From a virus, in the IMG/VR virus record IMGVR_UViG_3300035034_002799, positions 1 to 64,000 of that record: a stretch of DNA of 64,000 nt; one strand, written 5' to 3'. Numbering within the stretch: position 1 is the first letter of the stretch; every line of letters starts with the position of its first letter. Below the pieces are notes generated by a model. That model searched no databases, was not told where the DNA came from, and saw only the letters and a program-made list of their open reading frames with translations. Position numbers and translations under genes: made by a program. This document shows positions 24,024-40,946 of the stretch, piece by piece.

Positions 24024-25154
24024 ATGAAAACAGCAATAATGATACCAGCTCGCTCAGGGAGTAAAAGAGTTCCGAATAAAAATTTAAGACTATTAAGTGG
24101 GAAACCACTAATTACTTACGTTATTGAAACTTGTCTTAAAACGGATTTAGACGTTTGGGTGAATACAGACGATTTAAAGATTATTAATATGTGCCAAGAT
24201 TTATTCCCAGAAGTAAATATCTTTAAAAGAAAACCTGAACTTTGTTCAGATACTGCTACTAATGATGATTTTATGTTGGATTTTATGAACAAAGAATTAC
24301 GTTACAGTCATTTTCTTCAAGTCCTACCAACTTCTCCATTTGTAACTTTAGATGAAATTAATAATTTTGTATTGGCTATGAAAAGTCACGATACCGTTGT
24401 TTCAGTAAAAAATGCTCAAATTGGATGTGTATATGGTGACAGACCAATTAACTTCTCCAAAGATAAAAAGAACCCACCCTCACAGGAAATGACTCCTATC
24501 GGAATTTATGCCACTTCTTTAATGGGTTGGGAACGAACCACTTTTATTGATAATATGAATGAACTAGGCTGTGCGTATCATGGTGGTTTAGGATCAATAA
24601 AGTATTTTGAGCTTAGTGGGTTCTCTACTATTGATATTGACAACGAATCAGATTTTTTACTAGCAGAAGCGGTTGCTCAATTTATCCCTTTTCAAAGTCT
24701 CTATAAAAAGTTCTACTATGAAGATGGACAGTATATCGACTATTTTGTACCCAGAGTACTGAAAGATGATGGTATTGAAAAAACCACAGAAGTTAAACCA
24801 AACCAGAGAGTGGTTAGTGTTACTAATTTAATGCAAGAAATGACAGACCAAGAAGCTTGGTATAAGACAATTGTAGACTCCGATAGTAATTCGTGTACAG
24901 TGGTTAATCAAATGCCAGGAGAAGGTAACCGCCGCCATTATCACGCTAAGTGGAATGAGTGGTGGTATATTATTAGAGGTCAATGGAGATTCGATATTGA
25001 AGATGAGTCATATGTCGTAAAAGCTGGTGACTTAGTGTTTATTGAAAAGGGGAATAAACATCAGATAACGGCAATTGGTAATACCATTGCTTCTAGGTTA
25101 GCAGTGTCAAGATATGACGTTGAACATATTTATGCGGAGAAGCCAATTAGATGA
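24024..25154 (+). CDS. NeuA-like cytidylyltransferase fused to a cupin
   Basis: The N-terminal part (1-230) matches CMP-sialic acid/KDO synthetases: IPARSGSKRVPNKN (7-20), VLPTSPF and a late Asp-rich DIDNESDF metal site. These enzymes activate a sugar acid with CTP. Residues about 265-376 form a small cupin with HYHAKWNEWWYIIRG and GDLVFIEKGNKH. The fusion suggests a two-step enzyme or a sugar-binding regulator. SD gcggagg fits. It opens a tightly packed operon of at least seven genes through 30169. The sugar substrate is unknown. Confidence 0.8.
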   Translation: MKTAIMIPARSGSKRVPNKNLRLLSGKPLITYVIETCLKTDLDVWVNTDDLKIINMCQDLFPEVNIFKRKPELCSDTATNDDFMLDFMNKELRYSHFLQVLPTSPFVTLDEINNFVLAMKSHDTVVSVKNAQIGCVYGDRPINFSKDKKNPPSQEMTPIGIYATSLMGWERTTFIDNMNELGCAYHGGLGSIKYFELSGFSTIDIDNESDFLLAEAVAQFIPFQSLYKKFYYEDGQYIDYFVPRVLKDDGIEKTTEVKPNQRVVSVTNLMQEMTDQEAWYKTIVDSDSNSCTVVNQMPGEGNRRHYHAKWNEWWYIIRGQWRFDIEDESYVVKAGDLVFIEKGNKHQITAIGNTIASRLAVSRYDVEHIYAEKPIR

Positions 25155-25471
25155 GCTTTGTACATCACAAAACTAATGGTAAAAAACTAGGAGCGAAACT
25201 TCTCTTTGAGGGAGAAGACTATTCGGTCTATGTTATCAATGAAAAAGAAGGGAAAGTAATACCCAATCATATGCATAGTCATTGGGATGAATCATGGTAT
25301 ATTATTAATGGATTATATAGCATTACAATTGAAGGTAAGAATGTTTTTGCTTACCCAGGTGATTTTATTACAGTAGAGAGAAATACTCGACATTCTATTA
25401 GATGTGCATCAGATAATGCCACTCGTCTTGCTATTTTCAAAAAAGATGTGGGGATTGAGTATGAAGATTGA
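25151..25471 (+). CDS. small cupin-fold protein
   Basis: A 106-aa single cupin: PNHMHSHWDESWYIINGLY (about 36-54) and GDFITVERNTRHSI supply the usual His/Glu metal ligands. It resembles the C-terminal cupin of the preceding protein (both have HxHxxW-x4-WYII), so one probably arose by duplication. It may be a sugar epimerase/isomerase in the same pathway. It overlaps the previous gene by four bases and the next by eleven. Confidence 0.75.
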   Translation: MSFVHHKTNGKKLGAKLLFEGEDYSVYVINEKEGKVIPNHMHSHWDESWYIINGLYSITIEGKNVFAYPGDFITVERNTRHSIRCASDNATRLAIFKKDVGIEYED

Positions 25472-26168
25472 TTTTACGGGAAAGAGGGTTTTAGTTACTG
25501 GAGGAAGTAAGGGTATTGGTAAGAAACTCGTTGAAGATTTTAATAGTTTGGGTGCTGATGTGTATTGGACGAGTACTAAAAAAGTTTGCAACCTAAAGCA
25601 TTGGCAAGTTGATCTTACAAATTATAATGAAACTATAGAATTTATAAAATGGATTAAGACTATGGAATTTGATATTCTCATTAATAATGCAGGTACTAAT
25701 AAGATTGGACCTATTGAAGAATATGATATAAGGGACTATGAACAAATAATCAACCTAAACCTAACATCGTGTTTCAAAACAACACAAGCGGTTATTCCTC
25801 ACATGAAAGAAACTAGTTGGGGGCGAATTGTGAACATTACTTCAATTTCAAGTGAGATTAGTATGCCTCTTCGTTCTGCTTATTGTTCGAGTAAATTTGG
25901 CTTACTTGGTTTAACAAAAGCTTCTGCTGTCGAATTGGCTAAATATGGTATTTTAGTAAATTCAGTTGGACCAGGGGTTACTGAAACAGAATTAACAGTT
26001 GATGTACTTGGCAGAGAAAAGATGAACGAAATAGCATCTAATGTACCTATAGGTCGTTTAGCTACTGTTGATGATATTTCAAAAACAGTCATGTTTATGT
26101 CAAGTGATTTAAATACTTATATGGTAGGTCAAAACGTTATTGTTGATGGGGGGTATACTTGTGTTTAA
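25461..26168 (+). CDS. classical SDR oxidoreductase
   Basis: A 235-aa FabG-like NAD(P)-dependent dehydrogenase with TGGSKGIG (about 13-20), NNAG, the catalytic Ser in NITSIS and Y-x-x-x-K in YCSSKFG, plus the C-terminal VDGG. ATG 25461 starts a normal SDR N-terminus; an upstream TTG extension inside the cupin gene is not credible. It probably oxidises or reduces a sugar or cyclitol hydroxyl in this operon. Confidence 0.85.
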   Translation: MKIDFTGKRVLVTGGSKGIGKKLVEDFNSLGADVYWTSTKKVCNLKHWQVDLTNYNETIEFIKWIKTMEFDILINNAGTNKIGPIEEYDIRDYEQIINLNLTSCFKTTQAVIPHMKETSWGRIVNITSISSEISMPLRSAYCSSKFGLLGLTKASAVELAKYGILVNSVGPGVTETELTVDVLGREKMNEIASNVPIGRLATVDDISKTVMFMSSDLNTYMVGQNVIVDGGYTCV

Positions 26169-27210
26169 AGTTAAATCATATAAAGGGATATATAAGGTAG
26201 AAACTATTGATCATTTAACTTTCGATGATAATAAAGGTGATATTATAGTAGTTGATTCTTTTATTTGGGATCAATATATCTCAGTACTAAACCACATGGA
26301 TATATTTGATGCTTCTGTATATGTATTAGAAACAACCGAAGAAACTAAAACGTTAGAAGAATCACAAAAGTTAATAGATAAGATGATTCAGATTGGCTTT
26401 AATAAGAGTAATAAACTTATTGCTGTTGGTGGCGGTGTTATTCAAGACCTTGTATCGTTTACAGCCTCTATATATTCAAGAGGTGTTGATTGGGTGTTTT
26501 ATCCTACCACTCTTCTCGCTCAATGTGATAGTTGCATAGGAAGTAAGACTTCCATAAACTACAAAGGCAGTAAAAATAAGTTGGGAGGGTTTCATCCACC
26601 TAAAGAGATTTATATTTACCGAAAGTTTCTTGAAACACTTCCAGAGTCAGAGATAAAATCAGGCATTGGGGAAATGCTACATTATTTTTTATTGGACCAT
26701 AATTTTGACATATCAGAAAAGATGGTCAATGATGAAAATGTTTTAGAAAATATAGAAGAGTATGTAAAAGAAAGTCTCTCAATAAAAAAAGAAATGATTG
26801 AAAAAGACGAGTTTGATAAAGGAGAACGTAACTTATTTAATTACGGTCATACTTTTGGACACGCTATCGAATCAATCAGTAACTATGAAGTCAATCATGG
26901 ACAAGCAGTTACATTGGGAATGGAAATAGCTAATAGAATTTCATTAAAAAAAGAGTTAATCTCAAAAGATGTTTATAAAAGACTTAATAATATACTTATA
27001 AAAAATATACCTAACTATGGAATCAATAATAACGATAAATACGTACAAGCTCTTAATAACGATAAGAAAAACATTAGTAATAACTTAACATGTATATTAC
27101 TCACAAGTGAATATGCTATAAAAACAGAAATTGCCTACGAAGATGTAGTGGAGGTGATTAATGAGTTATTTGGGGATAATTTAAATTATCCCATAGATTT
27201 TATGATTTGA
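26161..27210 (+). CDS. dehydroquinate-synthase-family sugar phosphate cyclase
   Basis: A 349-aa member of the family that cyclises sugar phosphates (dehydroquinate, 2-deoxy-scyllo-inosose and valiolone synthases). Visible: GGGVIQDL, PTTLLAQCDSCIGSKTSIN, KNKLGGFHPP, NYGHTFGHAIE with metal His, NHGQAV and NNDKKN. Where dehydroquinate synthase has E-x-x-K, this has GEMLHY, so the Lys is His and the substrate may not be the shikimate precursor. GTG 26161 is favoured (G-rich SD, overlap with the previous stop); ATG 26146 is possible. No other shikimate genes are near. Confidence 0.8.
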   Translation: MFKVKSYKGIYKVETIDHLTFDDNKGDIIVVDSFIWDQYISVLNHMDIFDASVYVLETTEETKTLEESQKLIDKMIQIGFNKSNKLIAVGGGVIQDLVSFTASIYSRGVDWVFYPTTLLAQCDSCIGSKTSINYKGSKNKLGGFHPPKEIYIYRKFLETLPESEIKSGIGEMLHYFLLDHNFDISEKMVNDENVLENIEEYVKESLSIKKEMIEKDEFDKGERNLFNYGHTFGHAIESISNYEVNHGQAVTLGMEIANRISLKKELISKDVYKRLNNILIKNIPNYGINNNDKYVQALNNDKKNISNNLTCILLTSEYAIKTEIAYEDVVEVINELFGDNLNYPIDFMI

Positions 27211-27217
27211 GGTTTAT

Positions 27218-27997
27218 ATGAAAGTTTATAGTTTAACAAAGACACTAGATGATTACGTTGATTTTTATATTAACGACCCTTCCGAAGCGGAAGTTATTGT
27301 TGTTGGTGGGTCAAGTATTGATCTCGAAAAATTTCCTAAACTCAAATACATATTTAAGTGTGGAGTTGGGGTAGATAATATACCAGACCTTAAAGACACT
27401 GGTGTTAAATTGATTATGCCTTCCGAATTGACAAAAATCAAAATTTACGATGAGGTTTCTTCATTTGCTGTATTTTTAATTTTACAATCTCATTATAGAA
27501 AATTAGGTAATGTTTCTAAATGGGAAAAAGAAGAAAGAAAAACACTTTCTGATAAATCATGTCTAACAGTAGGGAGCATGGGTAATATTGGTAGATTTGT
27601 TTTTGACAAATTAGAAGATTTGTTTAAAGATAATGTTGGATTTGATGTGAATTCTTTTTTCCATACTACATTAGAAAAGGAAATGAAGTCGGCAGATATT
27701 GTAACCCTTCATTGTCCTCTTACTGATGGTAATAGAGGAATGATAAAAACAGAATGGCTTAAAGATGATGTGATATTGGTTAATACCGCAAGAGCAGAAT
27801 TAGTAGATGAAAATGAATTATATGAATTCCTAAAAAGTAACCCAAAGGCAACTGCCGCATTTGACGTATTTTGGGAAGAACCATATAAAGGTAAACTACT
27901 AGAACTTGATAACTTCATTGCCACACCACACGTTGCAAGTATGGGTGATGGTTTTCGTAAAGGTCTGTATAGAGACTTGATGGAGTTATTAAAATGA
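27218..27997 (+). CDS. D-2-hydroxyacid dehydrogenase family protein
   Basis: A 259-aa protein of the phosphoglycerate dehydrogenase type: CGVGVDNI, nucleotide-binding GSMGNIGR (about 117-124), HCPLT, VNTARAELVDE with catalytic Arg, and TPHVAS with the catalytic His. It is shorter than usual members (300-330 aa), mainly in the substrate domain. Would interconvert a hydroxy and keto acid or sugar using NAD(H). SD gagg; overlaps the next gene by four bases. Confidence 0.8.
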   Translation: MKVYSLTKTLDDYVDFYINDPSEAEVIVVGGSSIDLEKFPKLKYIFKCGVGVDNIPDLKDTGVKLIMPSELTKIKIYDEVSSFAVFLILQSHYRKLGNVSKWEKEERKTLSDKSCLTVGSMGNIGRFVFDKLEDLFKDNVGFDVNSFFHTTLEKEMKSADIVTLHCPLTDGNRGMIKTEWLKDDVILVNTARAELVDENELYEFLKSNPKATAAFDVFWEEPYKGKLLELDNFIATPHVASMGDGFRKGLYRDLMELLK

Positions 27998-28962
27998 AAA
28001 TTGGGATAATTGGATATGGTAAAATAGGAAAGATTAGACATGAGGTTTGTAAACAACTAATACCTAATGCTGAATATATGATTTATGATCCAAACGAAGA
28101 AACCAATTGTAAGAGTAGTCAAGAAGTAATAGATAAGACAGACCACGTATTTATTTGCACGCCAAATTTTTTAACCTCTGATTTAACTATAAAATGTTTA
28201 ATGGCTGGTAAGAATATTTTTTGTGAAAAACCACCAGCATTAAATTATGATGAGTTGCTTGAAGTTAATTATGCATACAGTAAAAACCGTAATTTGACTT
28301 TATTGTATGGATTTAATCATCGCCAATACGACAGTATTCAAAAGATGAAAGAGTTTATTGACAGTCAAGAAACTGGAAAAATTTTATGGATGAGAGGAAG
28401 GTACGGAAAGGCAATGGGTGATCCTAATACTACAGGATGGAGAGCAGACCCTAAAAAATGTGGAGGTGGTATTCTTTTAGACCAAGGTATTCATATGTTA
28501 GATTTAATGAATTGGTTTGGTGGGGATTTTGATACAGTTCAATCCGTCATAACAAATAATCTTTGGGGTATTGAAGGAATAGAAGATAATGCATTTTTAA
28601 ATCTTTATAATAGCTCGGATAACATTTCAGCATCGCTCCATTCGACGATGATAGAATGGAGACATATATTTTCATTAGAAATTGTTTTAGAACGAGGATA
28701 TGTTGCTCTCAATGGTTTAAAGACTCCATCTGGGTCTTATGGTAAAGAAGAGTTAACCATATGTAAAGACAAACATTTTGATTCCGATACGTCCACTAAA
28801 GAAACTATAGAGTTTAAGAACAATGATACTTGGTACAAGGAAGTACAATTATTTTTTGATAGTATTTTATCTGGAAAAAATAAAACTAATATAGAAGACG
28901 CGCTTGAAGTAATGAGGTTGATTAAGGAGGCTTATAATGGTATTAATGAAAAGACTCCCTGA
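27994..28962 (+). CDS. Gfo/Idh/MocA family sugar dehydrogenase
   Basis: A 322-aa NAD(P)-dependent oxidoreductase for sugars or inositols. It has a Rossmann start GIIGYGKIGK, the family signature CEKPPA near residue 84 with the key Lys, and a C-terminal domain with GGGILLDQGIHMLDL where the His is catalytic. The family often acts on cyclitols and on NDP-sugars, so it fits either reading of the pathway. SD ggag in the preceding gene. Confidence 0.85.
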   Translation: MKIGIIGYGKIGKIRHEVCKQLIPNAEYMIYDPNEETNCKSSQEVIDKTDHVFICTPNFLTSDLTIKCLMAGKNIFCEKPPALNYDELLEVNYAYSKNRNLTLLYGFNHRQYDSIQKMKEFIDSQETGKILWMRGRYGKAMGDPNTTGWRADPKKCGGGILLDQGIHMLDLMNWFGGDFDTVQSVITNNLWGIEGIEDNAFLNLYNSSDNISASLHSTMIEWRHIFSLEIVLERGYVALNGLKTPSGSYGKEELTICKDKHFDSDTSTKETIEFKNNDTWYKEVQLFFDSILSGKNKTNIEDALEVMRLIKEAYNGINEKTP

Positions 28963-30169
28963 AGATTTTTATAAAGATAAAAAAGTAATTGTTATTGGAC
29001 CGTCAGAAGGTGCTCCTAAAGAAGTTGAACAAGTTAACCTAGATGATTATGATTATGTTATAAGACTAAACGATCATTTTTACGACTCTGATAAACATGG
29101 TCTAGGTAAAAGAACTGATATAATTTATCATTCTCTTCTTAGTGGTCAATATAATAAAGACCATCTAACTTATTTAATAAAACACAATATTAAACTTATT
29201 GCTAGATACTGTAGTCCTAATAAAAAAATTGATGGTTATTTAAGAATGTGTGGAGACGAAACCCCAGATTGGTATCTTTTTAATGAAGGAAGAGCCAAAC
29301 GCTGTCCTATTGTATTAAAGTGTTGTCCAAGTACTGGAATTCTTGCAATATATGACGCATTAACGGATGGCGCTAAAGAAGTAGCTGCTTTAGGTTTCGA
29401 TTTTTATGAAACATTTTACACTGAGCGTCCTATAGAAACTATGAAACCAAAATCAATAAGCCGTATTATAAATGGTAACCATCGCCCAGCGACCCAACTT
29501 AGAAATTTTACTAAATGGGCTATGTGTAATAGAAGATTCAATCCAATTGGTAGATTTAAAGAACTTTTTGAAAGGGAGAAAATGATCATGAGTGAAGAAA
29601 AATTATTTCTTAAAAATAGAGTACAGGATGCCGCTAGAGCATCGCTTAATTTAGAATTGACGAGCGCATATGAATTCGCAGAAAAGATTTTTGAATTGAG
29701 GAAATCAGGTAAGAAAGCTATTTTCATGGGTAATGGTGCTTCGTATACTATCGCAAACCACGCTGCTCTTGATTATATGAGCCAACTGGGTATTCAGACG
29801 TTATGCGCAGCAGACCAAGCAGTTCTTACTGCGTTTGCTAATGATTTTGGGTATGACCACGCCTTAGAAAGATACTGTAAGATTAACTATAAAAAAGGTG
29901 ATATTTTAGTTTGTGTTAGTTCAAGTGGTAACTCACCAAATGTAGTTAACGCTGCTAAATGGGTCAAAGCTCAAGGAGGAACTGTTGTTACGTTTACTGG
30001 ATTTGAGCAAGATAATAAATTATCTGAGATAGCAAGCAGTAACTTTTGGGTAAACAGTAAAGTATATAACATAGTTGAATCTGTTCATAATCTTTGGCTA
30101 GCTATGATTTGTGATCTTATGATTGAATGGATGGGTGATGGTGTAGGTACTCACGGTATTAATATATGA
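28937..30169 (+). CDS. GT29 sialyltransferase-like domain fused to GmhA-like SIS isomerase
   Basis: A 410-aa two-part protein. Residues about 10-200 resemble GT29: VIVIGPSEGAPKE and YDYVIRLNDHF (sialyl motif L-like), then CPSTGILAIYDAL and EVAALGFDFYE (motif S-like). GT29 enzymes use CMP-sialic acid. Residues about 220-400 are a SIS domain like GmhA (MGNGASYTIANHAALD, CVSSSGNSPN, HNLWLAMICDLMIE); GmhA isomerises sedoheptulose 7-phosphate. In-frame ATG 29588 has its own SD gggag nine bases before it, so the isomerase may also be made alone. SD aaggagg fits ATG 28937. Confidence 0.8.
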   Translation: MVLMKRLPEDFYKDKKVIVIGPSEGAPKEVEQVNLDDYDYVIRLNDHFYDSDKHGLGKRTDIIYHSLLSGQYNKDHLTYLIKHNIKLIARYCSPNKKIDGYLRMCGDETPDWYLFNEGRAKRCPIVLKCCPSTGILAIYDALTDGAKEVAALGFDFYETFYTERPIETMKPKSISRIINGNHRPATQLRNFTKWAMCNRRFNPIGRFKELFEREKMIMSEEKLFLKNRVQDAARASLNLELTSAYEFAEKIFELRKSGKKAIFMGNGASYTIANHAALDYMSQLGIQTLCAADQAVLTAFANDFGYDHALERYCKINYKKGDILVCVSSSGNSPNVVNAAKWVKAQGGTVVTFTGFEQDNKLSEIASSNFWVNSKVYNIVESVHNLWLAMICDLMIEWMGDGVGTHGINI

Positions 30170-30218: not shown

Positions 30219-30240
30219 AAAGTTAATAGGTAGGTTAATT

Positions 30241-30444
30241 ATGAGTGACACATTAGAAACATTGGCAGAATACTCCAAAAACAAAAATGGTTTGATAATA
30301 GGACCATCTTCAAATGTTTTACAAGACGTTCGAGGAATTGATGTTGATGGATATGACGTAATTGTTAGATTGGACGGTCATTATAATAGGAAAGATAAAA
30401 GGCTTGTACCACTAGGTATATTTAGGAATTTATTAAATGACTAA
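30241..30444 (+). pseudogene. truncated GT29-like N-terminal fragment
   Basis: A 67-aa ORF whose residues 15-47 (GLIIGPSSN, GIDVDGYDVIVRLDGHY) match the start of the GT29 domain in the gene just upstream (IVIGPSEGA, YDYVIRLNDHF). The rest of the domain is absent. It has a late promoter and the following gene overlaps it by eight bases. Most likely the remnant of a tandem paralogue cut short by replacement with the DUF115 gene; a functional short protein cannot be excluded. Confidence 0.6.
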
Positions 30445-31893: not shown

Positions 31894-33957
31894 ATGAAAA
31901 AAGCATTAATCACGGGGATCACAGGACAAGACGGTAGTTACTTAACGGAACTGTTACTGGATAAAGGATATGAAGTACATGGAATAGTCCGTAGGTCTTC
32001 GTCTTTCAATACAGGTAGGATTGATCATTTAGTATCTGATCCTAAATTGTTTAATAAAACGTTACATCTTCATTTTGGTGACCTAACAGACTCAACTAAT
32101 ATTGACGAATTAATACGAACTATAAAGCCAGATGAAATTTATAATTTGGGCGCTCAATCTCATGTCAAAGTATCCTTCGAAGTTCCAGAATATACGGCAG
32201 ATGCTAATGCTATGGGACCACTAAGAATTTTAGAAGCTATGAAGAAGCATTGCCCTAATTCTAAGTATTACCAAGCTTCAACCAGTGAGATGTACGGTGG
32301 CGTAACAGAAGAGATGCCTGAAAAGGGATATAATGAAAACTCTCCCTTCCATCCCAGATCACCATATGGTGTAGCAAAGCTCTATGGACATTGGATTGCT
32401 CGTAATTACCGAGAGTCTTATAATATGTTTATAGTTTCGTCTTGCCTGTTTAATCATGAATGTTTCGATTCCAATACCCCGATAACTATAAAGAACGGCG
32501 AAACAATAGATGTCGTTTATATGAGAGACTTCTTACCAGAAAGAAAAGATATATCTAAAGATAATAATATTCTAATCGGAGATTTTTCTAATGAAAATAT
32601 AGAAGTATGGAATGGTAGCGGATATACTAAATTAAAAACTATAACTAGGCGCAAAATAAAAACCTTAGATACTGAAAATAGAAACAAAGTGGTCTCTAAT
32701 ACTAGAAATGGCTCAGTAGTTACTACACCCCATCACAATTTTCTAATAGGTCAGAAAAAAATACCACAGAGACAACTCAACTTACATGATGAATTAGATC
32801 ATGGGGGGTTACCGAAACTAGGTAATCATATTAAAATCACTGAGGCGGAAGCTAAATTTTTAGGAATGTTAGTAGGAGACGGTCATATATGTTCATCTGG
32901 TCATGTTCGTTTGGCGAACCTAGATCACGGTGAAACCTTTAAAGATTTATGCCGATTTCTATTTCCAGTCTTCAATATCAGAGAAGCTAACTACGCATCT
33001 GGGTATGGTGACAATACTAGACATCATAACGTGTCAGGTATTAGCAGTCATTTAGGTAAATTTTATAGGTCAGAAATATACGACGAACGCACAAAACATA
33101 AAAAAGTACCAAAGCGTATATTAAATTCTTCTTTGGAAGTAAAAACAAAATTCTTGGAGGGATATTATCTTTGTGATGGGTTAAAAAAAGACAAATGTAC
33201 ATATAAATTTAAGTCTTTTAAATCCAACTCACCACTATTATGTCAGGGTCTTATTTTACTTATGAATGAGGTAGTTGAAGGTTTCAAATTTAATATTAAT
33301 ACTTTTGAACAAAACAGTAGATTGTATAATCAAGTAAACATACATAGTGATAAAAAAGGAGATAAAGGACTACATTTGATAAAAAATAATAAAGAACTTA
33401 AAAAAGAGATCATATTAGATGAGTCTAATTGTTTTGTATATGACATAGAAACTGAATGTGGTTACTTACAAGCTGGGGTAGGTTCTATGGTGTTGGCTAA
33501 CTCACCACGTAGAGGTGATACATTCGTAACCAAAAAGATTACAAACTGGTGTAAAAAATGGAAAATGAACCCCAATGAAACTGAGCCGCTTGAATTGGGT
33601 AATTTATACGCTTATCGTGATTGGGGTCACGCTAAGGACTTTATGAATTGTGTGTATTTAATGATGCAACAAGAAACTCCAGAAGACTTCGTAATAGCTA
33701 CTGGTGAAACATACACCGTTAAGGATTTCGTTGAAGAGTGCTTTAATCAATTGGGAGAATCAATAACTTGGAAAGGTGAAGGTATTAATGAAGTAGGACT
33801 GGTAAATAATAAAACAGTAGTAAAAATCAATCCTAAATACTTCCGTCCTGCTGAGGTGGATATTTTGTTGGGTGATTCATCAAAGGCTCGTAAGAAGCTT
33901 GGATGGACCCCTGAGTATAATTTTAAAACGCTTGTTAAAGATATGTTGGATAACTAA
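31894..33957 (+). CDS. gmd: GDP-mannose 4,6-dehydratase interrupted by an intein
   Basis: Makes GDP-4-keto-6-deoxy-mannose, the branch point to GDP-fucose, colitose, perosamine and rhamnose. The 687-aa precursor starts with [10 protein letters not shown] (8-17), has the TSEMYGG motif with catalytic Thr/Glu, YGVAK and, after the intein, [10 protein letters not shown]. Removing intein residues 190-536 leaves a 340-aa enzyme, close to normal length, with exteins joining as FNHE-SPRRG. The promoter is probably TATAAT at 31865-31870, divergent from the SGNH gene. Followed by FkbM, SDR, GT, ColD-like and GT10 genes. Confidence 0.93.
32461..33501 (+). mobile_element. LAGLIDADG intein in Gmd (347 aa)
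   Basis: Starts with Cys (residue 190), has a block B TTPHHNFL, two LAGLIDADG helices ([10 protein letters not shown] and LEGYYLCDG, both with the catalytic Asp) and ends SMVLAN before Ser 537. The usual penultimate His is Ala. Splicing would join GDP-mannose-binding sequence at a highly conserved site, as is typical of inteins. Both Asp are kept, so the homing endonuclease may be active. Confidence 0.93.
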
Positions 33958-34535
33958 TGACTGAACACGAAAGATGGCTTAAAGATAACGGTGAAGAAAA
34001 GCGTTTAACATACCCATTAAACACCAAAAGTCTTTACGTGGATTTTGGTGCTTATGACGGTAAATTCGCTAGAAAGATTTATGATAAATTCAAATGTCAG
34101 ATAATTGCTTATGAGCCTATTCCTAAATTTTTGGATTTATGTGAGAAAAACTTAGAAGGTACAGATGCTACTGTTTTGCCTTATGGTGTTGGTAAAGAAA
34201 ATATCCAATTATATGTAGAAGATACTAATGATGCCACCCATCTTTTTTCTAAAGGTAATATTAAAATTGAAGTTAGAGATGTTTATAATCTTATAGGTAA
34301 AGATGATATAGACCTTCTAAAAATTAATATCGAAGGTGCTGAATATGATGTCTTAGAGAGAATGATCGAAACTGATTTATTAAAAAACGTTCGTTATCTT
34401 CAAGTTCAGTTTCATAAATTTCCTCATGTTGAACGACCAGTGGAAAGAAGACAAAAGATTTGGGAAGAACTTCAAAAAACTCATAAATGTCAATGGTCTT
34501 ATGATTTTGTTTGGGAGAGTTGGGAGAGAAAATGA
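33957..34535 (+). CDS. FkbM-family methyltransferase
   Basis: A 192-aa SAM-dependent methyltransferase. Motif I is YVDFGAYDGKFA (about 27-38); IAYEPIP follows; DLLKINIEGAEYDVLERM (near 118-135) is the FkbM signature. FkbM enzymes O-methylate sugars and other hydroxyls. It overlaps the gmd stop by one base and the next gene by four, so it belongs to the GDP-sugar operon. Confidence 0.85.
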   Translation: MTEHERWLKDNGEEKRLTYPLNTKSLYVDFGAYDGKFARKIYDKFKCQIIAYEPIPKFLDLCEKNLEGTDATVLPYGVGKENIQLYVEDTNDATHLFSKGNIKIEVRDVYNLIGKDDIDLLKINIEGAEYDVLERMIETDLLKNVRYLQVQFHKFPHVERPVERRQKIWEELQKTHKCQWSYDFVWESWERK

Positions 34536-35458
34536 ATAAAGGCGATGTTATTTATGTAACTGGTTCTACTGGTCTGGTAGGTAGTGCTATTATGAGAAAA
34601 CTAAAAGAAGAAGGATTTACTCAAGTTTATGGAGCTTCAAGAGCTAATGGTTGTGATTTGGGAGATGTTAACTATGTAAAAGACATTCTATGGCATGTAC
34701 GTCCAAAATACATATTCCATTGTGCGTCTATGGTTGGTGGAATTGGTAAAAACATTAAATACCCCGCCGACTTTGGTTTAACTAATTCCCGAATAAACAA
34801 TAATGTTATTGAATGGGCTAGGGTTGTTAATGCTAAACTGTTATTTCTAGGTTCTTCTTGTATCTACCCCAGAGAATGCCCACAACCAATGAAAGAAGAA
34901 TATCTTATGACTGGTCCATGTGAACCAACCAATGAGATGTATGCTCTATCTAAGATTTATGGCATTAAAATGTGTCAGGCGTATCGTAAACAATACGGTA
35001 ATAATTTTATTACTTGTCAGCCTGCTAATATATATGGGGTAGGGGATCACTTCGATCCTGAAAACGCTCATGTTGTGGGTTCTCTTATTAGTAAATTTCA
35101 CAAAGCAAAGATCGAGAAGACACCTGTTGAACTTTGGGGTGATGGTTCAGCAATGAGAGAATTATTATATGTTGATGATGTTGCTGATGCTTGTTTGTTT
35201 CTTATGAACAATTATGACGGGGAAGAATTAATCAATGTTGGAACTGGTATTGATATTACTATAAAAGAATTAGCAAATATGATCAAGAAGGTTGTCGGGT
35301 ATGATGGGCACATTCAATGGGATGTTCTAAAGCCTAATGGAATGCCCCGCAAAGTTCTAGATGTAGCAAAAATTCATTCAATGGGATGGGAACATAAATT
35401 TGACCTTGACAAAGGAATAGAAAAGACTTATAATTGGTATTTGGGGAATATAATATGA
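34532..35458 (+). CDS. GDP-fucose synthase/GDP-colitose synthase-like SDR
   Basis: A 308-aa epimerase-reductase acting on GDP-4-keto sugars. Residues: TGSTGLVGSAI (about 11-21), MVGGIG, GSSCIYPRECPQP with catalytic Ser/Cys, and Y-A-L-S-K (YxxxK). The family comprises Fcl/WcaG and ColC, which cannot be separated by motif. The presence of a ColD-like dehydratase two genes on favours ColC, the last step to GDP-L-colitose. SD gggagag; ATGA overlap at 34532; an upstream in-frame start at 34511 is rejected. Confidence 0.85.
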   Translation: MNKGDVIYVTGSTGLVGSAIMRKLKEEGFTQVYGASRANGCDLGDVNYVKDILWHVRPKYIFHCASMVGGIGKNIKYPADFGLTNSRINNNVIEWARVVNAKLLFLGSSCIYPRECPQPMKEEYLMTGPCEPTNEMYALSKIYGIKMCQAYRKQYGNNFITCQPANIYGVGDHFDPENAHVVGSLISKFHKAKIEKTPVELWGDGSAMRELLYVDDVADACLFLMNNYDGEELINVGTGIDITIKELANMIKKVVGYDGHIQWDVLKPNGMPRKVLDVAKIHSMGWEHKFDLDKGIEKTYNWYLGNII

Positions 35459-36288
35459 TTAACGTTATTATGTATAGTTTTGACCGAGCTTGTCAGTTAG
35501 ATTTAGCGTTAAGGTCAATAAAAGATCACTTTGCGGAATGGCAAAGTTGTACATGGACTATTATTGTAAAGTGTAGTAACGATGAATATTCAAAAGGATA
35601 TTCAAGAGTTAGACAACTTCATCCTGAAAGGCAATTTGAATTTGTTCATGAGATTAATTTTAGAGATGATACCCGCCGAGCTTTTAATAAACCGAATAAA
35701 CCCTATACTACATGGATGATGGACGATGATGCGTTTATTAGACCGTTCTCATTACAGGATCAACAATTTAAGGATTTCGCAAATAATCAAGAGATCACTA
35801 CTTTAAGTTGTAGACTAGCACCATATATGAACGAATGTTACACACAATCAAGAAAAGCATTAGTTCCTGATCTTACCGAAAATTTAACATGGAACTGGCG
35901 TAATTCATCCAAATTAGATTTGTTTCATGGATACCCTACTGATTGGGGGTATCCTATGTCAATTGCTAGTTTCCATATTTTTAGAACATATCAAATAGCA
36001 AGTACTGTTAATAAAGTAATATTTAAAGCACCTAATTCTCTTGAAGGTCAGTTAGCTCTTAATCCTCCTGCTGGTGACTATATGATGTGTTACCCAAGAG
36101 CTTTAAATATCAACATTCCTATTAATAAAGCCCAAACTGAAAATGGTAATCGTTTTGGTAATAAATCTCATCTTCAACAAGATGTCCTCAACCGAGAATT
36201 TATAGTAGGAAAAAGATTATCTACTGATAAAGTATATGGAGCAGTCACACCTAGCCCTCATTATGAATTAGATTTGGAGTTTGAATGA
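35455..36288 (+). CDS. glycosyltransferase-like protein (GT-A type)
   Basis: A 277-aa protein beginning INVIMYSFDRACQLDLALRS, the nucleotide-binding start typical of GT2-like enzymes, with a metal-binding WMMDDDAFI near residue 90. Acceptor unknown. It lies between the SDR and the ColD-like gene with four-base overlaps on both sides, so it probably transfers a sugar made by this operon. Other GT-A subfamilies are possible. Confidence 0.65.
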   Translation: MINVIMYSFDRACQLDLALRSIKDHFAEWQSCTWTIIVKCSNDEYSKGYSRVRQLHPERQFEFVHEINFRDDTRRAFNKPNKPYTTWMMDDDAFIRPFSLQDQQFKDFANNQEITTLSCRLAPYMNECYTQSRKALVPDLTENLTWNWRNSSKLDLFHGYPTDWGYPMSIASFHIFRTYQIASTVNKVIFKAPNSLEGQLALNPPAGDYMMCYPRALNINIPINKAQTENGNRFGNKSHLQQDVLNREFIVGKRLSTDKVYGAVTPSPHYELDLEFE

Positions 36289-37448
36289 AATACCCACTTG
36301 CAACTGAAACATGGACAGACATCGAAAAAAAGGTAGCTAAAGATGTCATTGATAGTGGCATGTGTACTATGGGTAATATAACAAAAGAATTTGAGGCTAA
36401 ATTTGCTGAATTTTTCGGAAGCAAATATGCAGTATTTAGTAACTCTGGTTCTTCAGCTAACCTATTGGCAGTAGCTGCATTAGTTCATAAATATAATTTA
36501 CAACGAGGAGATGAAGTCATTGTCCCTGCGGTATCTTGGAGTACTACATATTATCCATTACAACAGTATGGTTTGAAATTAGTTTTTGTAGACGTAAACG
36601 AAAACGATTTTAATATTGACATTGACGAAGTAACAAAAGCATTAACACACAAAACGAGATTAATTGTTGCAGTTAATCTTCTTGGTATGTCATGTAATTT
36701 TGGTGCGCTTGAGCATATTTGTAAATCTAAAAACATTATCCTTATGGAAGATAATTGTGAGTCAATGGGTGCTACATATGAAGATAAGTATTGTGGTGCG
36801 ATTGGTGAAATAGGAACTTTTAGTACTTTTTTCTCACATCATATATGTACTGTCGAAGGTGGTGTTACAGTAACTAATGATGAGGAACTTTATCATTTAA
36901 TGCTTTCAATTCGTTCTCATGGATGGACTCGACATCTACCAGACAATAATCATATTGAAAATAAAACGGGTGATTCTTTTTATGATTCTTACCGTTTTGT
37001 GTTGCCTGGGTATAATCTTAGAAATAATGACATTTTTGCTGCTATAGGTTTAGAACAACTTAAGAAATTACCTGAATTAGTTTCTAAAAGAATAGAAAAT
37101 TGGGATTATATGGTTTGTTCACTACAATATATCAACGTTAGTAATTTAAAACTTCAATGGACCAATGACGACCGCAGTAGTTCGTCTTGGTTTGGTTTCG
37201 GTTTCATTTATGATGGGGATAGAGACTCTTTAGTTAAAACCCTCACTGAAGAAGGTATTGATACCCGTCCTATCGTAGCTGGTAACTTTTGCAAAAACCC
37301 TGTGATTCAATATATGAATCACAGGATTGTAGGTGACTTACCTATTGCTAATTTAATTGATAAACAAGGTTTCTTTGTTGGTAATAACGGAAGTTCCTTG
37401 AGTTCTCAAATTGATCATTTTATTAATATTATTTCGAAAAATGCTTGA
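36285..37448 (+). CDS. ColD-like GDP-4-keto-6-deoxymannose 3-dehydratase
   Basis: A 387-aa PLP enzyme of the DegT/DnrJ family with FSNSGSSANLLA, EDNCESMGA and GEIGTFSTFFSHHICTVEGG. In aminotransferases the residue six before the E of EGG is the Lys that binds PLP; here it is His (about residue 186). This replacement is the known hallmark of ColD and the E1/RfbH dehydratases, which remove the C3 hydroxyl instead of aminating. With Gmd and the SDR at 34532 it completes GDP-colitose. SD ggag; four-base overlap upstream. Confidence 0.85.
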   Translation: MKYPLATETWTDIEKKVAKDVIDSGMCTMGNITKEFEAKFAEFFGSKYAVFSNSGSSANLLAVAALVHKYNLQRGDEVIVPAVSWSTTYYPLQQYGLKLVFVDVNENDFNIDIDEVTKALTHKTRLIVAVNLLGMSCNFGALEHICKSKNIILMEDNCESMGATYEDKYCGAIGEIGTFSTFFSHHICTVEGGVTVTNDEELYHLMLSIRSHGWTRHLPDNNHIENKTGDSFYDSYRFVLPGYNLRNNDIFAAIGLEQLKKLPELVSKRIENWDYMVCSLQYINVSNLKLQWTNDDRSSSSWFGFGFIYDGDRDSLVKTLTEEGIDTRPIVAGNFCKNPVIQYMNHRIVGDLPIANLIDKQGFFVGNNGSSLSSQIDHFINIISKNA

Positions 37449-38307
37449 TTATAAACTCAGCAAAGTTAGCTTCGCCAAGTAACTTATCTTGTGCTACTTT
37501 TGTAGACTTGTTATTTACGAACTGGTCGGTATTATAGTAAGCATTTTTTATTGTATTAAATATATCATTTACGTCATCACTAAGCTTATAGTGAGTCTCT
37601 TCTCCAAAAACATGATGACAGTGGTTAGCTCCCCAATATAAAGGAACACAATCACATATGATAGGATCAACAAATTTCTCAGTTATCCAATAAGGCATTC
37701 TTTTATTTTCAATAGCGATATTCATTTTATAATCTCTAAAGGCTAAAGTCTTATCTGCTATTTCTCCTTTAACTCTTCCGTCTAGTGGATAAAGTTCACG
37801 ACTACCTCTCCCATAAACATGAATATCCATATCGCTTGCTAAAATCTTTTTGATCAAACCATGGCGAAGATTGTGACCAGGTAAGAATTTCTTATTAGAT
37901 GCAATAATACTCATTTTCTGCGGTTTTTCTGGATTAGTATATCCAGAAAAATCTTTTACTAAAGGGATGTTTGGTAAGAATGTATACCATTCTTTTATAT
38001 TAGGACCGTTCATATAACGAAGATCGTAAACAAAATAGGTTCCTACATGTTTATCAACCCACTCTCTATATTTGTTCATATCAATAAGTTCATATACTTC
38101 TTGATGAAAACCCACCACGTTTTCTTTAGGTACTTTAAGTTGTGGGAGTTTACCATGATTGAAAATACACGCATGGGTATAGCTTTCATCATCAACAACC
38201 GTAATATTTTTGTAAGTAGTATTACCTAATCCCCAAGATTTAAATGCACCTTTAGCTACAGTAGGAGTGGTATAATCTGAAAATATTTTAAGCCTTATTT
38301 CTTGCAT
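37429..38307 (-). CDS. GT10 (fucosyltransferase-fold) glycosyltransferase
   Basis: A 292-aa transferase whose C-terminal half carries the GT10 core: YKMNIAIENKRMPYWITEKF then CDCVPLYWGA (about residues 193-227), which binds GDP-fucose in known members. Since the window supplies Gmd and a fucose/colitose synthase, it probably adds L-fucose or L-colitose. It is last in a minus-strand run of four glycosyltransferases and overlaps the ColD-like gene tail-to-tail by 20 bases. Confidence 0.82.
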   Translation of the reverse strand: MQEIRLKIFSDYTTPTVAKGAFKSWGLGNTTYKNITVVDDESYTHACIFNHGKLPQLKVPKENVVGFHQEVYELIDMNKYREWVDKHVGTYFVYDLRYMNGPNIKEWYTFLPNIPLVKDFSGYTNPEKPQKMSIIASNKKFLPGHNLRHGLIKKILASDMDIHVYGRGSRELYPLDGRVKGEIADKTLAFRDYKMNIAIENKRMPYWITEKFVDPIICDCVPLYWGANHCHHVFGEETHYKLSDDVNDIFNTIKNAYYNTDQFVNNKSTKVAQDKLLGEANFAEFIIKHFSK

Positions 38308-39439
38308 TGGTATGTTCCCATGTTTTAATGTATTCTTTTAGTTCGGTAATTGTCATTTTTAAAACTTTTTCATGTTCTCTTATATTATTCCTATAAAGAG
38401 GATTTGAATATGTACTATTTTGAGTTATCATATGATCTACATGATAAAGATAACCTTCTAATGAATCAACTTTATAACCTAGTTTTTTAACTCTATGTAA
38501 TCTTTCCTGGTCTTCTGGACCCCATGAAATCATGTTTTCATTTTCCATCCCAGCTTCAATAAATTTTTCTCTATTCATAAAGAAACATCCACCAGGAGGA
38601 ATTCCTTGGTGAATAATCCCAGTTAACGAATCTACAATATCAAGATTGAGAGTTTCTCTTATTATTCTAAAGTCTTTCTTAAATATGTGTTTGAGAGGTT
38701 TATTAAAAGGATAACAAAAATCAAGTTTACCTGAACGAATAGCTTCAGCCGCCGCGACATATTTATCTGGTTGCATAAGAACGTCAGAATCGTAACTAAC
38801 AATAATAGGAGTAGTTACTAATTCAGCCATCTTATTAAGTATTCTTGTTTTATAAAAGTAGTCGGTTTTGTTTTCAATGAAAAGACAGCGAACATAAGAG
38901 TTCCATTCTGGTTTCCAAAAATCCTTAATGTTTATTTTCTTACCGCTTTCACATATAATAATATTAGTATTAAAATATTTACCTAAGTAGTCAATAATTA
39001 AAGTTAGATTGTTTTTTCTGTCTTGTGATTCTATACCAACAGGTATAGTAAAAGTTACGTCAGATAGATCAATTTTCCCACTATTTTCCATTTTTTTATT
39101 TCCTTTTAATACTTTATATTCTATAGTATTTGTTTCAGCTTTTTCTTTTTCTATTACTTGTTTTTCAGTTTCGACGTCTTCTACATATACTTCTATGGGC
39201 GTTTCGTCTTTTATTATGACATCTTCAATATTCACTTCTGTAGGTAGAGATAATTTTCTTAAACTATTACGAACTTCTATATTAGGTACCGTTGTATCTT
39301 CATCTGATAATTTTAGTAAACCCTTATAACTAGAAAAGAATTCAGGACCATTAATAGTTTGCTGGGGAGCGACTACTATTCTTCGACCGTGATGTAATAT
39401 TCTAATTTTACGGCGTGATGTGTTTTTAAATTCTGCCAT
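38288..39439 (-). CDS. galactosyltransferase-type GT with N-terminal extension
   Basis: A 383-aa protein. Residues about 120-380 match a GT7-like fold: DVTFTIPVGIESQDR, the metal site SYDSDV and GGCFFMNREKF with WGPEDQERLHRVKKLG. It is paralogous to the next upstream gene (DVTFTIPV, NYDTDV, WGFEDTERDYRA). Residues 1-116 are an extra charged module with no relative there. An in-frame ATG at 39091, after aaaaggaaat, may allow a short form. SD cggag fits ATG 39439. Confidence 0.75.
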   Translation of the reverse strand: MAEFKNTSRRKIRILHHGRRIVVAPQQTINGPEFFSSYKGLLKLSDEDTTVPNIEVRNSLRKLSLPTEVNIEDVIIKDETPIEVYVEDVETEKQVIEKEKAETNTIEYKVLKGNKKMENSGKIDLSDVTFTIPVGIESQDRKNNLTLIIDYLGKYFNTNIIICESGKKINIKDFWKPEWNSYVRCLFIENKTDYFYKTRILNKMAELVTTPIIVSYDSDVLMQPDKYVAAAEAIRSGKLDFCYPFNKPLKHIFKKDFRIIRETLNLDIVDSLTGIIHQGIPPGGCFFMNREKFIEAGMENENMISWGPEDQERLHRVKKLGYKVDSLEGYLYHVDHMITQNSTYSNPLYRNNIREHEKVLKMTITELKEYIKTWEHTNARNKA

Positions 39440-39451
39440 TATTACTCCGTT

Positions 39452-40228
39452 TTAGTCCTTGAGCCACTTCCAAGATTTAATGTATTCATTTAGTAAATTC
39501 TTGTTCATTTGACTAACCTTAACCCATTCCTTTTCGTTCTTTTTATAAAAAGGATGTGAATTAGTAGCACTGTTAGGACTTGATCCGTGACTCATATGAA
39601 AAAGTGGACCTTTAAGTCGATTAACATTCAGCCCCATAGTTCTTGCTCTATAGTCTCTTTCAGTATCTTCAAACCCCCAAGATACAAAGTTTTCATTTTC
39701 CATACCAACACTAATGAATTTTTCTTTTGACCAGAAAATAGCACCACCAACCGAATCTGCTTTAGGTCGAAGGTTTCTACATACAGTTTCTGGAACATCT
39801 AGAGTTAAACTATTTCCTAATTTATGAACATGTGTTGCTGGTACATCCAGAAAGTTACCATTATATGGAAAAATTAAATCACTAAAACCGTTGCGAATCA
39901 TTGTAGCTGCTTCGACATATTGTTCAGGTTGTAAAAGCACATCAGTATCATAGTTTACAATAATTGGCGTGGTTGCTAATTTTGCCATATAATTAAGCAT
40001 CATAGTACGATGAAACCATTGGCTTTGGGTTTTCATAAAAATATACTTATAATCTATACCTTCATCAATATGTTGTTTAGCTTTTGATTCGGTGTCCATT
40101 TCGCATATCATAATATTTGTTTTAAGATGTTTTTTCAAATAACGGGTCATAATATTTAGATTACGACCACGGTCTGGTTGGTCTATTTTTACTGGAATTG
40201 TAAAGGTAACGTCACTTAGGTCTAACAT
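39452..40228 (-). CDS. galactosyltransferase-type GT
   Basis: A 258-aa GT-A enzyme: DVTFTIPVKIDQPDRGRNL at the start, NYDTDV metal site (about 95), GGAIFWSKEKF and WGFEDTERDYRARTMG. The ATG at 40228 is chosen because cggag lies upstream and the paralogue starts its domain at the same point; a longer frame from 40354 runs inside the neighbouring gene. Sugar specificity unknown. Confidence 0.78.
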   Translation of the reverse strand: MLDLSDVTFTIPVKIDQPDRGRNLNIMTRYLKKHLKTNIMICEMDTESKAKQHIDEGIDYKYIFMKTQSQWFHRTMMLNYMAKLATTPIIVNYDTDVLLQPEQYVEAATMIRNGFSDLIFPYNGNFLDVPATHVHKLGNSLTLDVPETVCRNLRPKADSVGGAIFWSKEKFISVGMENENFVSWGFEDTERDYRARTMGLNVNRLKGPLFHMSHGSSPNSATNSHPFYKKNEKEWVKVSQMNKNLLNEYIKSWKWLKD

Positions 40229-40946
40229 GTGTATACTCCGCACTAATAGGTATATGAATTTTAGGGACTGCTCCGTGATAAATTCTTGCATTATGTTGTA
40301 TGTATTTCTTTTTGTCCGATTCGTCAATAACAGAAGGGGTATGAATCCAATCAATATAAGGAGTAGATTCCATTACATGGAAATGCTCTTTAGGATGATA
40401 CATTCCAGCCATTCTACATCTGCGTGTATAATCGGCATGTTCATATCCATATCTATTATAACGCTCATCGAAGGCACCCACTTGGTTTAAACATTCTTTT
40501 GTCATTACCATTAGGACTCCGTTTACATAAGCACCGCATAGACCCAAATGAATTGATTCATACTTAAGAGCCTTCTTTATCATTTTTCTGTAGTCAGAAA
40601 CAATATAATTCATATGCTGAAACCCAGATTGTTCGATTGCTCTAAGATACACATCAATCCACCCTGATTTTTTAAAGCAGATATCATCCTCACTTATGAA
40701 TACAACATCATTATCTTTTAAAAAATGGAGAAGTCTATTCTTATTAACAGGGATACCACTGTTAGGTCCATGAATAAGACCAAAATTTTCGGCAATCCAT
40801 TCATAGCCTGTGGTATCATGGTCATCTACTGAACAAATAGTCTGTATCTCGTGTTTATTCTTATCTGTGGTCTTAAGAATATCTTCACATACTTTAGTTG
40901 CCAAGTCTGGTCTTTTATATGAACAAACCCCAATTCCGATCTTCAT
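40212..40946 (-). CDS. GT2-like glycosyltransferase
   Basis: A 244-aa GT-A protein: IGVCSYKRPDLA at the N-terminus, VFISEDDICF as metal site (about 80-89), and GAFDERYNRYGYEHADYTRR as acceptor/base region. SD aagggg precedes the ATG. It is first in the minus-strand transferase run and overlaps the next gene by 17 bases. The intergenic region toward 41020 serves both directions. Confidence 0.8.
   Translation of the reverse strand: MKIGIGVCSYKRPDLATKVCEDILKTTDKNKHEIQTICSVDDHDTTGYEWIAENFGLIHGPNSGIPVNKNRLLHFLKDNDVVFISEDDICFKKSGWIDVYLRAIEQSGFQHMNYIVSDYRKMIKKALKYESIHLGLCGAYVNGVLMVMTKECLNQVGAFDERYNRYGYEHADYTRRCRMAGMYHPKEHFHVMESTPYIDWIHTPSVIDESDKKKYIQHNARIYHGAVPKIHIPISAEYTHVRPK

What the first reader, a model, noticed from the sequence alone, without database searches (positions are those of the whole stretch)
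24024..30169. CMP-sugar-like operon built around a sugar phosphate cyclase, with a GT29 transferase
Seven tightly overlapping genes: CTP transferase-cupin, cupin, SDR, dehydroquinate-synthase-family cyclase, hydroxyacid dehydrogenase, Gfo/Idh/MocA dehydrogenase, and GT29-SIS. There is no NeuB, so the CMP donor is probably not made by the usual sialic route. The cyclase lacks the E-x-x-K Lys of dehydroquinate synthase, and the GmhA-like domain belongs to a family that uses sedoheptulose 7-phosphate, also the substrate of valiolone-type cyclases. A CMP-activated carbasugar or cyclitol transferred by a sialyltransferase-fold enzyme is a possible, apparently undescribed phage system.
Basis: inference. 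Interest (0 to 1): 0.8.

Follow-up and report, generated by a model that had tools for sequence, protein, structure and literature searches.

The report
Phage copy of unknown CMP-sugar operon
An uncultured T4-like phage carries a complete copy of a sugar-making gene set that recurs in about twenty bacterial phyla, uses a ring-forming enzyme where the usual sialic-acid synthase would be, and has no published product that could be found here, so it may lead to an undescribed charged surface sugar.

Summary
The seven genes are real and sit where stated. They are not phage-specific. The cyclase belongs to a clade (NCBIfam TIGR04425, "AroB-related putative sugar phosphate phospholyase", function unknown) that is separate from AroB, EEVS, DOIS and DDGS. 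In bacteria its gene almost always sits in the same module: of 44 well-flanked loci, 43 have the SDR, 41 the Gfo/Idh enzyme, 37 the hydroxyacid dehydrogenase, 32 the SIS isomerase and 42 a CMP-transferase (NeuA- or KdsB-type). Only 4 have NeuB; 26 have a pyruvate (HpcH) aldolase. AroB paralogues in the same genomes lack these neighbours. A SAR86 locus has the window's set, including the transferase-cupin fusion. So "CMP donor without NeuB" holds up. The valiolone reading does not: all 12 other DHQS catalytic residues are kept and the EEVS/DOIS signatures are absent. Lys-to-His at the E-x-x-K Lys arose once, in the subclade that includes the phages. Best reading: a phage-borne copy of an uncharacterised, widespread operon for a CMP-activated acidic, probably ulosonic-type sugar with a cyclase-made carbocyclic part, used by a distant GT29-like transferase. 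The product is inferred, not shown.

The parts
24024..25154 (+). CMP-sugar synthetase (NeuA-like, about residues 1-225) fused to a cupin (about residues 263-376)
   Evidence: Pfam CTP_transf_3 71 bits, Cupin_2 50 bits; nearest solved structures are NeuA/CMAS; the same fusion in SAR86 L061 and viral L003, L008
25151..25471 (+). stand-alone cupin, function unknown
   Evidence: Cupin_2 41 bits
25461..26168 (+). SDR oxidoreductase, next to the cyclase in nearly every relative
   Evidence: adh_short_C2 158 bits; SDR in 43 of 44 bacterial loci
26146..27210 (+). sugar phosphate cyclase of the TIGR04425 clade (Zn/NAD DHQS fold), K197 replaced by His
   Evidence: TIGR04425 376.6 bits against aroB 268.2; own clade SH-aLRT 100; residues; model pLDDT 90.9, best PDB match DHQS
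27218..27997 (+). short D-2-hydroxyacid dehydrogenase, catalytic Arg/Glu/His motifs present by eye
   Evidence: 2-Hacid_dh_C 99.7 bits; nearest PDB phosphoglycerate dehydrogenase/glyoxylate reductase
27994..28962 (+). Gfo/Idh/MocA dehydrogenase, EKP motif present by eye
   Evidence: GFO_IDH_MocA_C3 76 bits; nearest PDB myo-inositol 2-dehydrogenase
28937..30169 (+). GT29-like domain (about 28937-29581) fused to a GmhA-like SIS domain (about 29573-30166)
   Evidence: SIS_2 45 bits; GT29-like by homologues; GmhA structures match the SIS half
30220..30436 (+). truncated second copy of a GT29-like N-terminus, probably a remnant
   Evidence: phmmer 26.5 bits to the window GT29 domain; profile 1.1e-5

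Best explanation
A phage-borne copy of a widespread but uncharacterised bacterial operon that makes a CMP-activated acidic sugar, with a GT29-like transferase to use it. Proposed route: the SIS domain sets the right sugar phosphate isomer. The cyclase, by dehydroquinate-synthase chemistry (transient oxidation, loss of phosphate, ring closure), makes a carbocyclic keto compound, so no separate phosphatase is needed. The SDR reduces the ring ketone. The Gfo/Idh and 2-hydroxyacid dehydrogenases adjust oxidation state; the latter belongs to a family that includes 2-ketoaldonate reductases, so it could create or use the 2-keto acid function that CMP-transferases need. In many bacteria an HpcH aldolase adds pyruvate instead of NeuB. 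A cupin (a YhcH/NanQ-like protein in other loci) may open or flip the anomer. The NeuA-like domain makes the CMP donor and the GT29-like domain transfers it, perhaps onto a glycan built by the phage's adjacent GDP-sugar cluster. Shown: gene set, linkage, clade, pocket residues, NeuA/KdsB and GT29 relationships. Inferred: substrates, order, carbocycle, CMP donor identity, acceptor, benefit to the phage.
For: Same module around the cyclase in 44 well-flanked bacterial loci: SDR 43, CMP-transferase 42, Gfo 41, HADH 37, SIS 32, HpcH 26, NeuB 4. AroB paralogues in 8 of those genomes have no such neighbours. SAR86 L061 carries SIS, SDR, cyclase, HADH, Gfo and the NTase-cupin fusion. The GT29-like gene lies directly upstream of the NTase in most viral relatives. 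Window NTase matches NeuA/CMAS in the PDB. YhcH-type N-acetylneuraminate-anomerase relatives occur in 10 of the 48 well-flanked loci. Every DHQS active-site residue but one is kept and the fold is confirmed.
Against: No enzyme of the clade has a known substrate, so the carbocycle and its place in the CMP sugar are inferences. The window lacks HpcH and the class-III aminotransferase that most viral relatives have, so it may need host enzymes or make something else. The GT29 domain is weak on its own and its model is poor (pLDDT 62). CMP transfer of a purely carbocyclic tertiary alcohol would be chemically odd.
Confidence: 0.58

Rival explanations
1. One reading: the cyclase is a valiolone-type (EEVS-like) enzyme acting on sedoheptulose 7-phosphate, and the carbasugar itself is activated as a CMP donor.
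For: GmhA-like SIS domain; a CMP-transferase in the same operon; the AU test does not reject joining the clade with EEVS/DDGS (p 0.248).
Against: EEVS residues Met250, Asp268, Pro275 and lack of K356 are all absent; DHQS residues kept in all 91 members (89 of 91 at N268). AroB structures rank above DOIS in the fold search and EEVS is not among the best 50.
Confidence: 0.13
2. Oxidative heptulosonate route: SIS, Gfo/Idh and HADH turn a heptose 7-phosphate into a hept-2-ulosonic acid 7-phosphate, which the cyclase closes to a quinate-like hydroxy acid.
For: K250, R264 and N268 are kept as in DHQS, whose substrate is such an acid (roles from own knowledge). HADH and Gfo family roles. Explains loci without HpcH.
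Against: The product would have no anomeric centre for normal CMP activation; HADH is absent from some loci.
Confidence: 0.15
3. The cyclase is simply a second dehydroquinate synthase and the transferase uses ordinary host CMP-sialic acid or CMP-Kdo.
For: Near-complete DHQS active site and DHQS fold.
Against: Separate clade from AroB; an AroB-like gene is also present in 8 of 8 genomes; constant partners absent from aroB loci; K197 changed in the phage subclade.
Confidence: 0.07
4. The module is cargo in decay or without function in this phage.
For: A broken GT29-like fragment lies just downstream (30220-30436); HpcH and AT3 are missing.
Against: All seven frames are intact and mostly overlapping with catalytic motifs kept; the viral cyclases form a supported clade (98).
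Confidence: 0.07

Closest known systems
NCBIfam TIGR04425 (AroB-related putative sugar phosphate phospholyase, cyclizing)
   Same: Same clade; 8 bacterial relatives tested score above its cut-off and all 42 aligned members match it
   Different: Window protein is 23 bits under the curated cut-off; the family has no known function
3-dehydroquinate synthase (AroB)
   Same: Fold and 12 of 13 listed active-site residues
   Different: K197 to His; separate clade; coexists with an AroB in bacterial genomes; constant sugar-operon partners
Sialic acid/Kdo CMP-sugar pathways (NeuA, NeuB, KdsB, KdsA)
   Same: NeuA- or KdsB-type CMP-transferase, YhcH-type anomerase relatives, GT29-like transferase
   Different: No NeuB in the phage record and NeuB in only 4 of 44 bacterial loci; a cyclase/SDR pair and often an HpcH aldolase instead
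EEVS/valiolone (acarbose, validamycin) pathways
   Same: A sugar phosphate cyclase followed by dehydrogenases and nucleotidyl activation
   Different: Different cyclase clade and pocket; CMP- rather than NDP-type activation
GT29 sialyltransferases
   Same: L-, S- and VS-like motifs visible in the alignment
   Different: Very divergent, fused to a SIS domain, window copy below the Pfam cut-off

Membership tests
TIGR04425 cyclase | Score above curated cut-off (400 bits) | tested here: not met
   376.6 bits
TIGR04425 cyclase | Groups in one clade with members above the cut-off | tested here: met
   SH-aLRT 100, 64 rows; relatives above cut-off
3-dehydroquinate synthase (AroB) | Groups with AroB and passes TIGR01357 cut-off (305 bits) | tested here: not met
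   268.2 bits; outside the AroB rows
3-dehydroquinate synthase (AroB) | Complete DHQS active-site set | tested here: not met
   12 of 13 listed residues kept, K197 is His
EEVS / S7P cyclase | Met at K250, Asp at N268, Pro at H275, no K356 | tested here: not met
   K, N, H, K instead
DOIS | Glu at N268, Asn at K356, no R264 | tested here: not met
   N, K, R instead
CMP-sugar synthetase (NeuA/KdsB superfamily) | CTP_transf_3 domain above cut-off | tested here: met
   71.1 bits against 22.6
CMP-sugar synthetase (NeuA/KdsB superfamily) | Uses CTP and a 2-ulosonic acid | not testable with these tools
   needs an assay
GT29 sialyltransferase | PF00777 above cut-off | tested here: not met
   window 14.1 against 23 bits; homologues 25.5-41.7
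GT29 sialyltransferase | Sialyltransferase fold | tested here: inconclusive
   model pLDDT 62, GT half mostly below 60
GmhA phosphoheptose isomerase | Above NCBIfam gmhA cut-off | tested here: not met
   67.1 against 209.45 bits
Classical sialic-acid pathway | NeuB synthase | tested here: not met
   no PF03102 match in the 85-kb record

The most novel reading that the evidence does not exclude
The operon makes a CMP-activated sugar acid containing a cyclase-built carbocycle (for example a C7 cyclitol aldehyde extended by pyruvate to a bicyclic C10 ulosonic acid), a class of nucleotide sugar not described in anything found here, widespread in bacterial surface polysaccharides and borrowed by T4-like phages.
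Probability: 0.33. Interest if true: 0.85.

Novelty: new variant of a known kind. Interest (0 to 1): 0.62.

Why it matters
If right, a nucleotide-sugar pathway present in about twenty bacterial phyla, including SAR86, Prochlorococcus and Pelagibacteraceae single cells, has gone without a known product. The compact phage operon and its SAR86 counterpart give a small gene set that can be expressed and tested directly. It would also assign a function to a family that NCBI lists only as hypothetical, and show phages carrying it next to a transferase of the sialyltransferase type.

Tried and rejected
Valiolone-type cyclase: rejected on pocket residues. AroB duplicate: disfavoured by tree, coexistence and context. 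Phage-specific system: rejected by bacterial loci. Isolate phages with the module: none found (one search found only weak SIS-domain matches). First viral scan with the GT29-SIS protein found no relative. Structure of GT29-SIS: model too poor to search. Deep placement of the clade relative to EEVS/DDGS: unresolved (AU p 0.248; two further tests did not finish). Link to bradyrhizose: an idea only; the paper on its cluster says the synthesis genes are unknown, implicates an 11-gene cluster with a dTDP-glucose dehydratase, and a search of its text finds no dehydroquinate synthase or aldolase (PMC4743980). Paper searches found no description of this pathway, but subscription journals are mostly missing from that library.

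Full report
Observation. The seven ORFs lie at 24024-30169 on the + strand, mostly overlapping by a few bases. The window is bases 1-64000 of an 85,206-base IMG/VR virus record. Its DNA polymerase is closest, at about 32% identity, to cyanomyoviruses, so it is a distant, uncultured T4-like phage. No NeuB and no HpcH aldolase are found in the whole record.

GT29 claim. The N-terminal domain of 28937-30169 scores 14.1 bits to PF00777 (cut-off 23), while its viral and bacterial homologues score 25.5-41.7. A profile of ten homologues finds the window domain at 5e-12, and the alignment shows L-, S- and VS-like motifs. It is therefore a divergent GT29-like domain by homology. The fold could not be tested because the model was poor (pLDDT 62). 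A fragment of a second such domain lies at 30220-30436.

Relatives. One viral relative (L002) has GT29-like, SIS, NTase, cupin, SDR and cyclase genes in a row, followed by a class-III aminotransferase. Scans with a two-sequence alignment gave ten viral and eighty genome loci. In bacteria the cyclase is surrounded by the same partners. Among 44 loci with more than 5 kb on both sides, leaving out a subgroup with a thiamine-diphosphate enzyme, SDR is present in 43, a CMP-transferase in 42 (KdsB-type 25, NeuA-type 18), Gfo in 41, HADH in 37, SIS in 32, HpcH aldolase in 26 and NeuB in 4. Other recurring neighbours are a YhcH/N-acetylneuraminate-anomerase relative and a PF04199 'cyclase'. A SAR86 single cell (L061) has SIS, SDR, cyclase, HADH, Gfo, the NTase-cupin fusion and an aminotransferase. 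Most genomes are MAGs, so single taxonomic labels may be wrong; L013, titled Thaumarchaeota, looks like viral DNA.

Control. Eight genomes carrying the cyclase above the TIGR04425 cut-off also have a lower-scoring AroB-like gene elsewhere. The neighbourhoods of those eight AroB genes contain no HADH, Gfo, SIS, NTase, KdsB, HpcH or YhcH hit, and one distant SDR.

Which cyclase. In a tree with AroB, DOIS, EEVS/S7P cyclases and DDGS, the 64 TIGR04425-type rows form one clade (SH-aLRT 100). The window row lies with nine viral-type rows (98), nested among bacterial ones. How this clade attaches to the others is not resolved. The window protein is below the TIGR04425 cut-off (376.6 against 400 bits), so it is placed by the tree, not by the curated score. 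Reference rows for EEVS, DDGS and DOIS came from PDB alignments and annotated plasmid genes.

Active site. Using A. nidulans DHQS numbering (residue roles from own knowledge), all 91 members keep D146, K152, K161, N162, E194, K250, R264, H271, H275, H287 and K356, and 89 keep N268. K197 is His in 39 members, including the window, and Lys in 52; on the tree this needs one change. EEVS has Met250, Asp268, Pro275 and no K356; DOIS has Glu268 and Asn356; both keep K197. So the lost lysine is real but does not point to EEVS or DOIS. The pocket is closest to DHQS, which suggests, without proving, an acidic ketose-phosphate-like substrate. The AlphaFold model is confident (pLDDT 90.9) and matches DHQS structures first.

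Other enzymes. The NTase is nearest to NeuA and CMAS among solved structures. The Gfo protein is nearest to myo-inositol 2-dehydrogenase, the HADH to phosphoglycerate dehydrogenase and glyoxylate reductase, the SIS domain to GmhA, with Asp aligned to the GmhA Glu.

Mechanism. Linkage to NeuA- or KdsB-type transferases, to anomerase-like proteins and to a GT29-like gene overlapping or abutting the NTase gene in most viral relatives makes a CMP-activated acidic sugar the best reading. The cyclase removes phosphate while closing a ring, so it could deliver an unphosphorylated product to later steps. HpcH in many bacteria offers a pyruvate-adding step in place of NeuB; where it is absent, as in the phage, the HADH/Gfo pair could supply the keto-acid function, or host enzymes could help. 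Substrate, order and product are inferences.

Novelty. No isolate phage carries the module and no paper found here describes it. The cyclase family is named by NCBI but hypothetical. I rate it a new variant of a known kind, CMP-sugar operons.

Noticed in passing
window 31894-33957: GDP-mannose 4,6-dehydratase gene appears split by an in-frame intein with LAGLIDADG-like motifs (about residues 190-540), starting Cys and ending Asn before Ser.
   Followed up: partly
window 33957-40946: A second sugar cluster next door: FkbM methyltransferase, GDP-fucose synthase-like SDR, DegT aminotransferase, GT10 fucosyltransferase-like and two GT7-like proteins on the opposite strand; possible acceptor glycan.
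   Followed up: partly
window 30220-30436: Truncated GT29-like fragment between the operon and the MptE-like gene at 30437.
   Followed up: yes
L002 10817-11347: A short HpcH/HpaI-like aldolase domain (24.2 bits, just under cut-off) in a viral relative, just after a sulfotransferase-like gene.
   Followed up: partly
L058, L060, L068, L071, L075, L081, L082, L087, L088, L089: A subgroup of the cyclase clade pairs with a thiamine-diphosphate enzyme and, in most, a different HpcH-like protein, without Gfo, HADH or NTase; Microcystis, Geobacter and Nitrospira among them.
   Followed up: no
L002-L009: Most viral relatives have a class-III aminotransferase in place of HADH and Gfo, suggesting an amino version of the sugar.
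   Followed up: no
L092 1710-4109: Extremely serine-rich 800-residue frame in the tail-gene region of the virus record.
   Followed up: no
L018 14160-15281: Tandem SIS-SIS fusion in the Desulfuromonadales version of the module.
   Followed up: no
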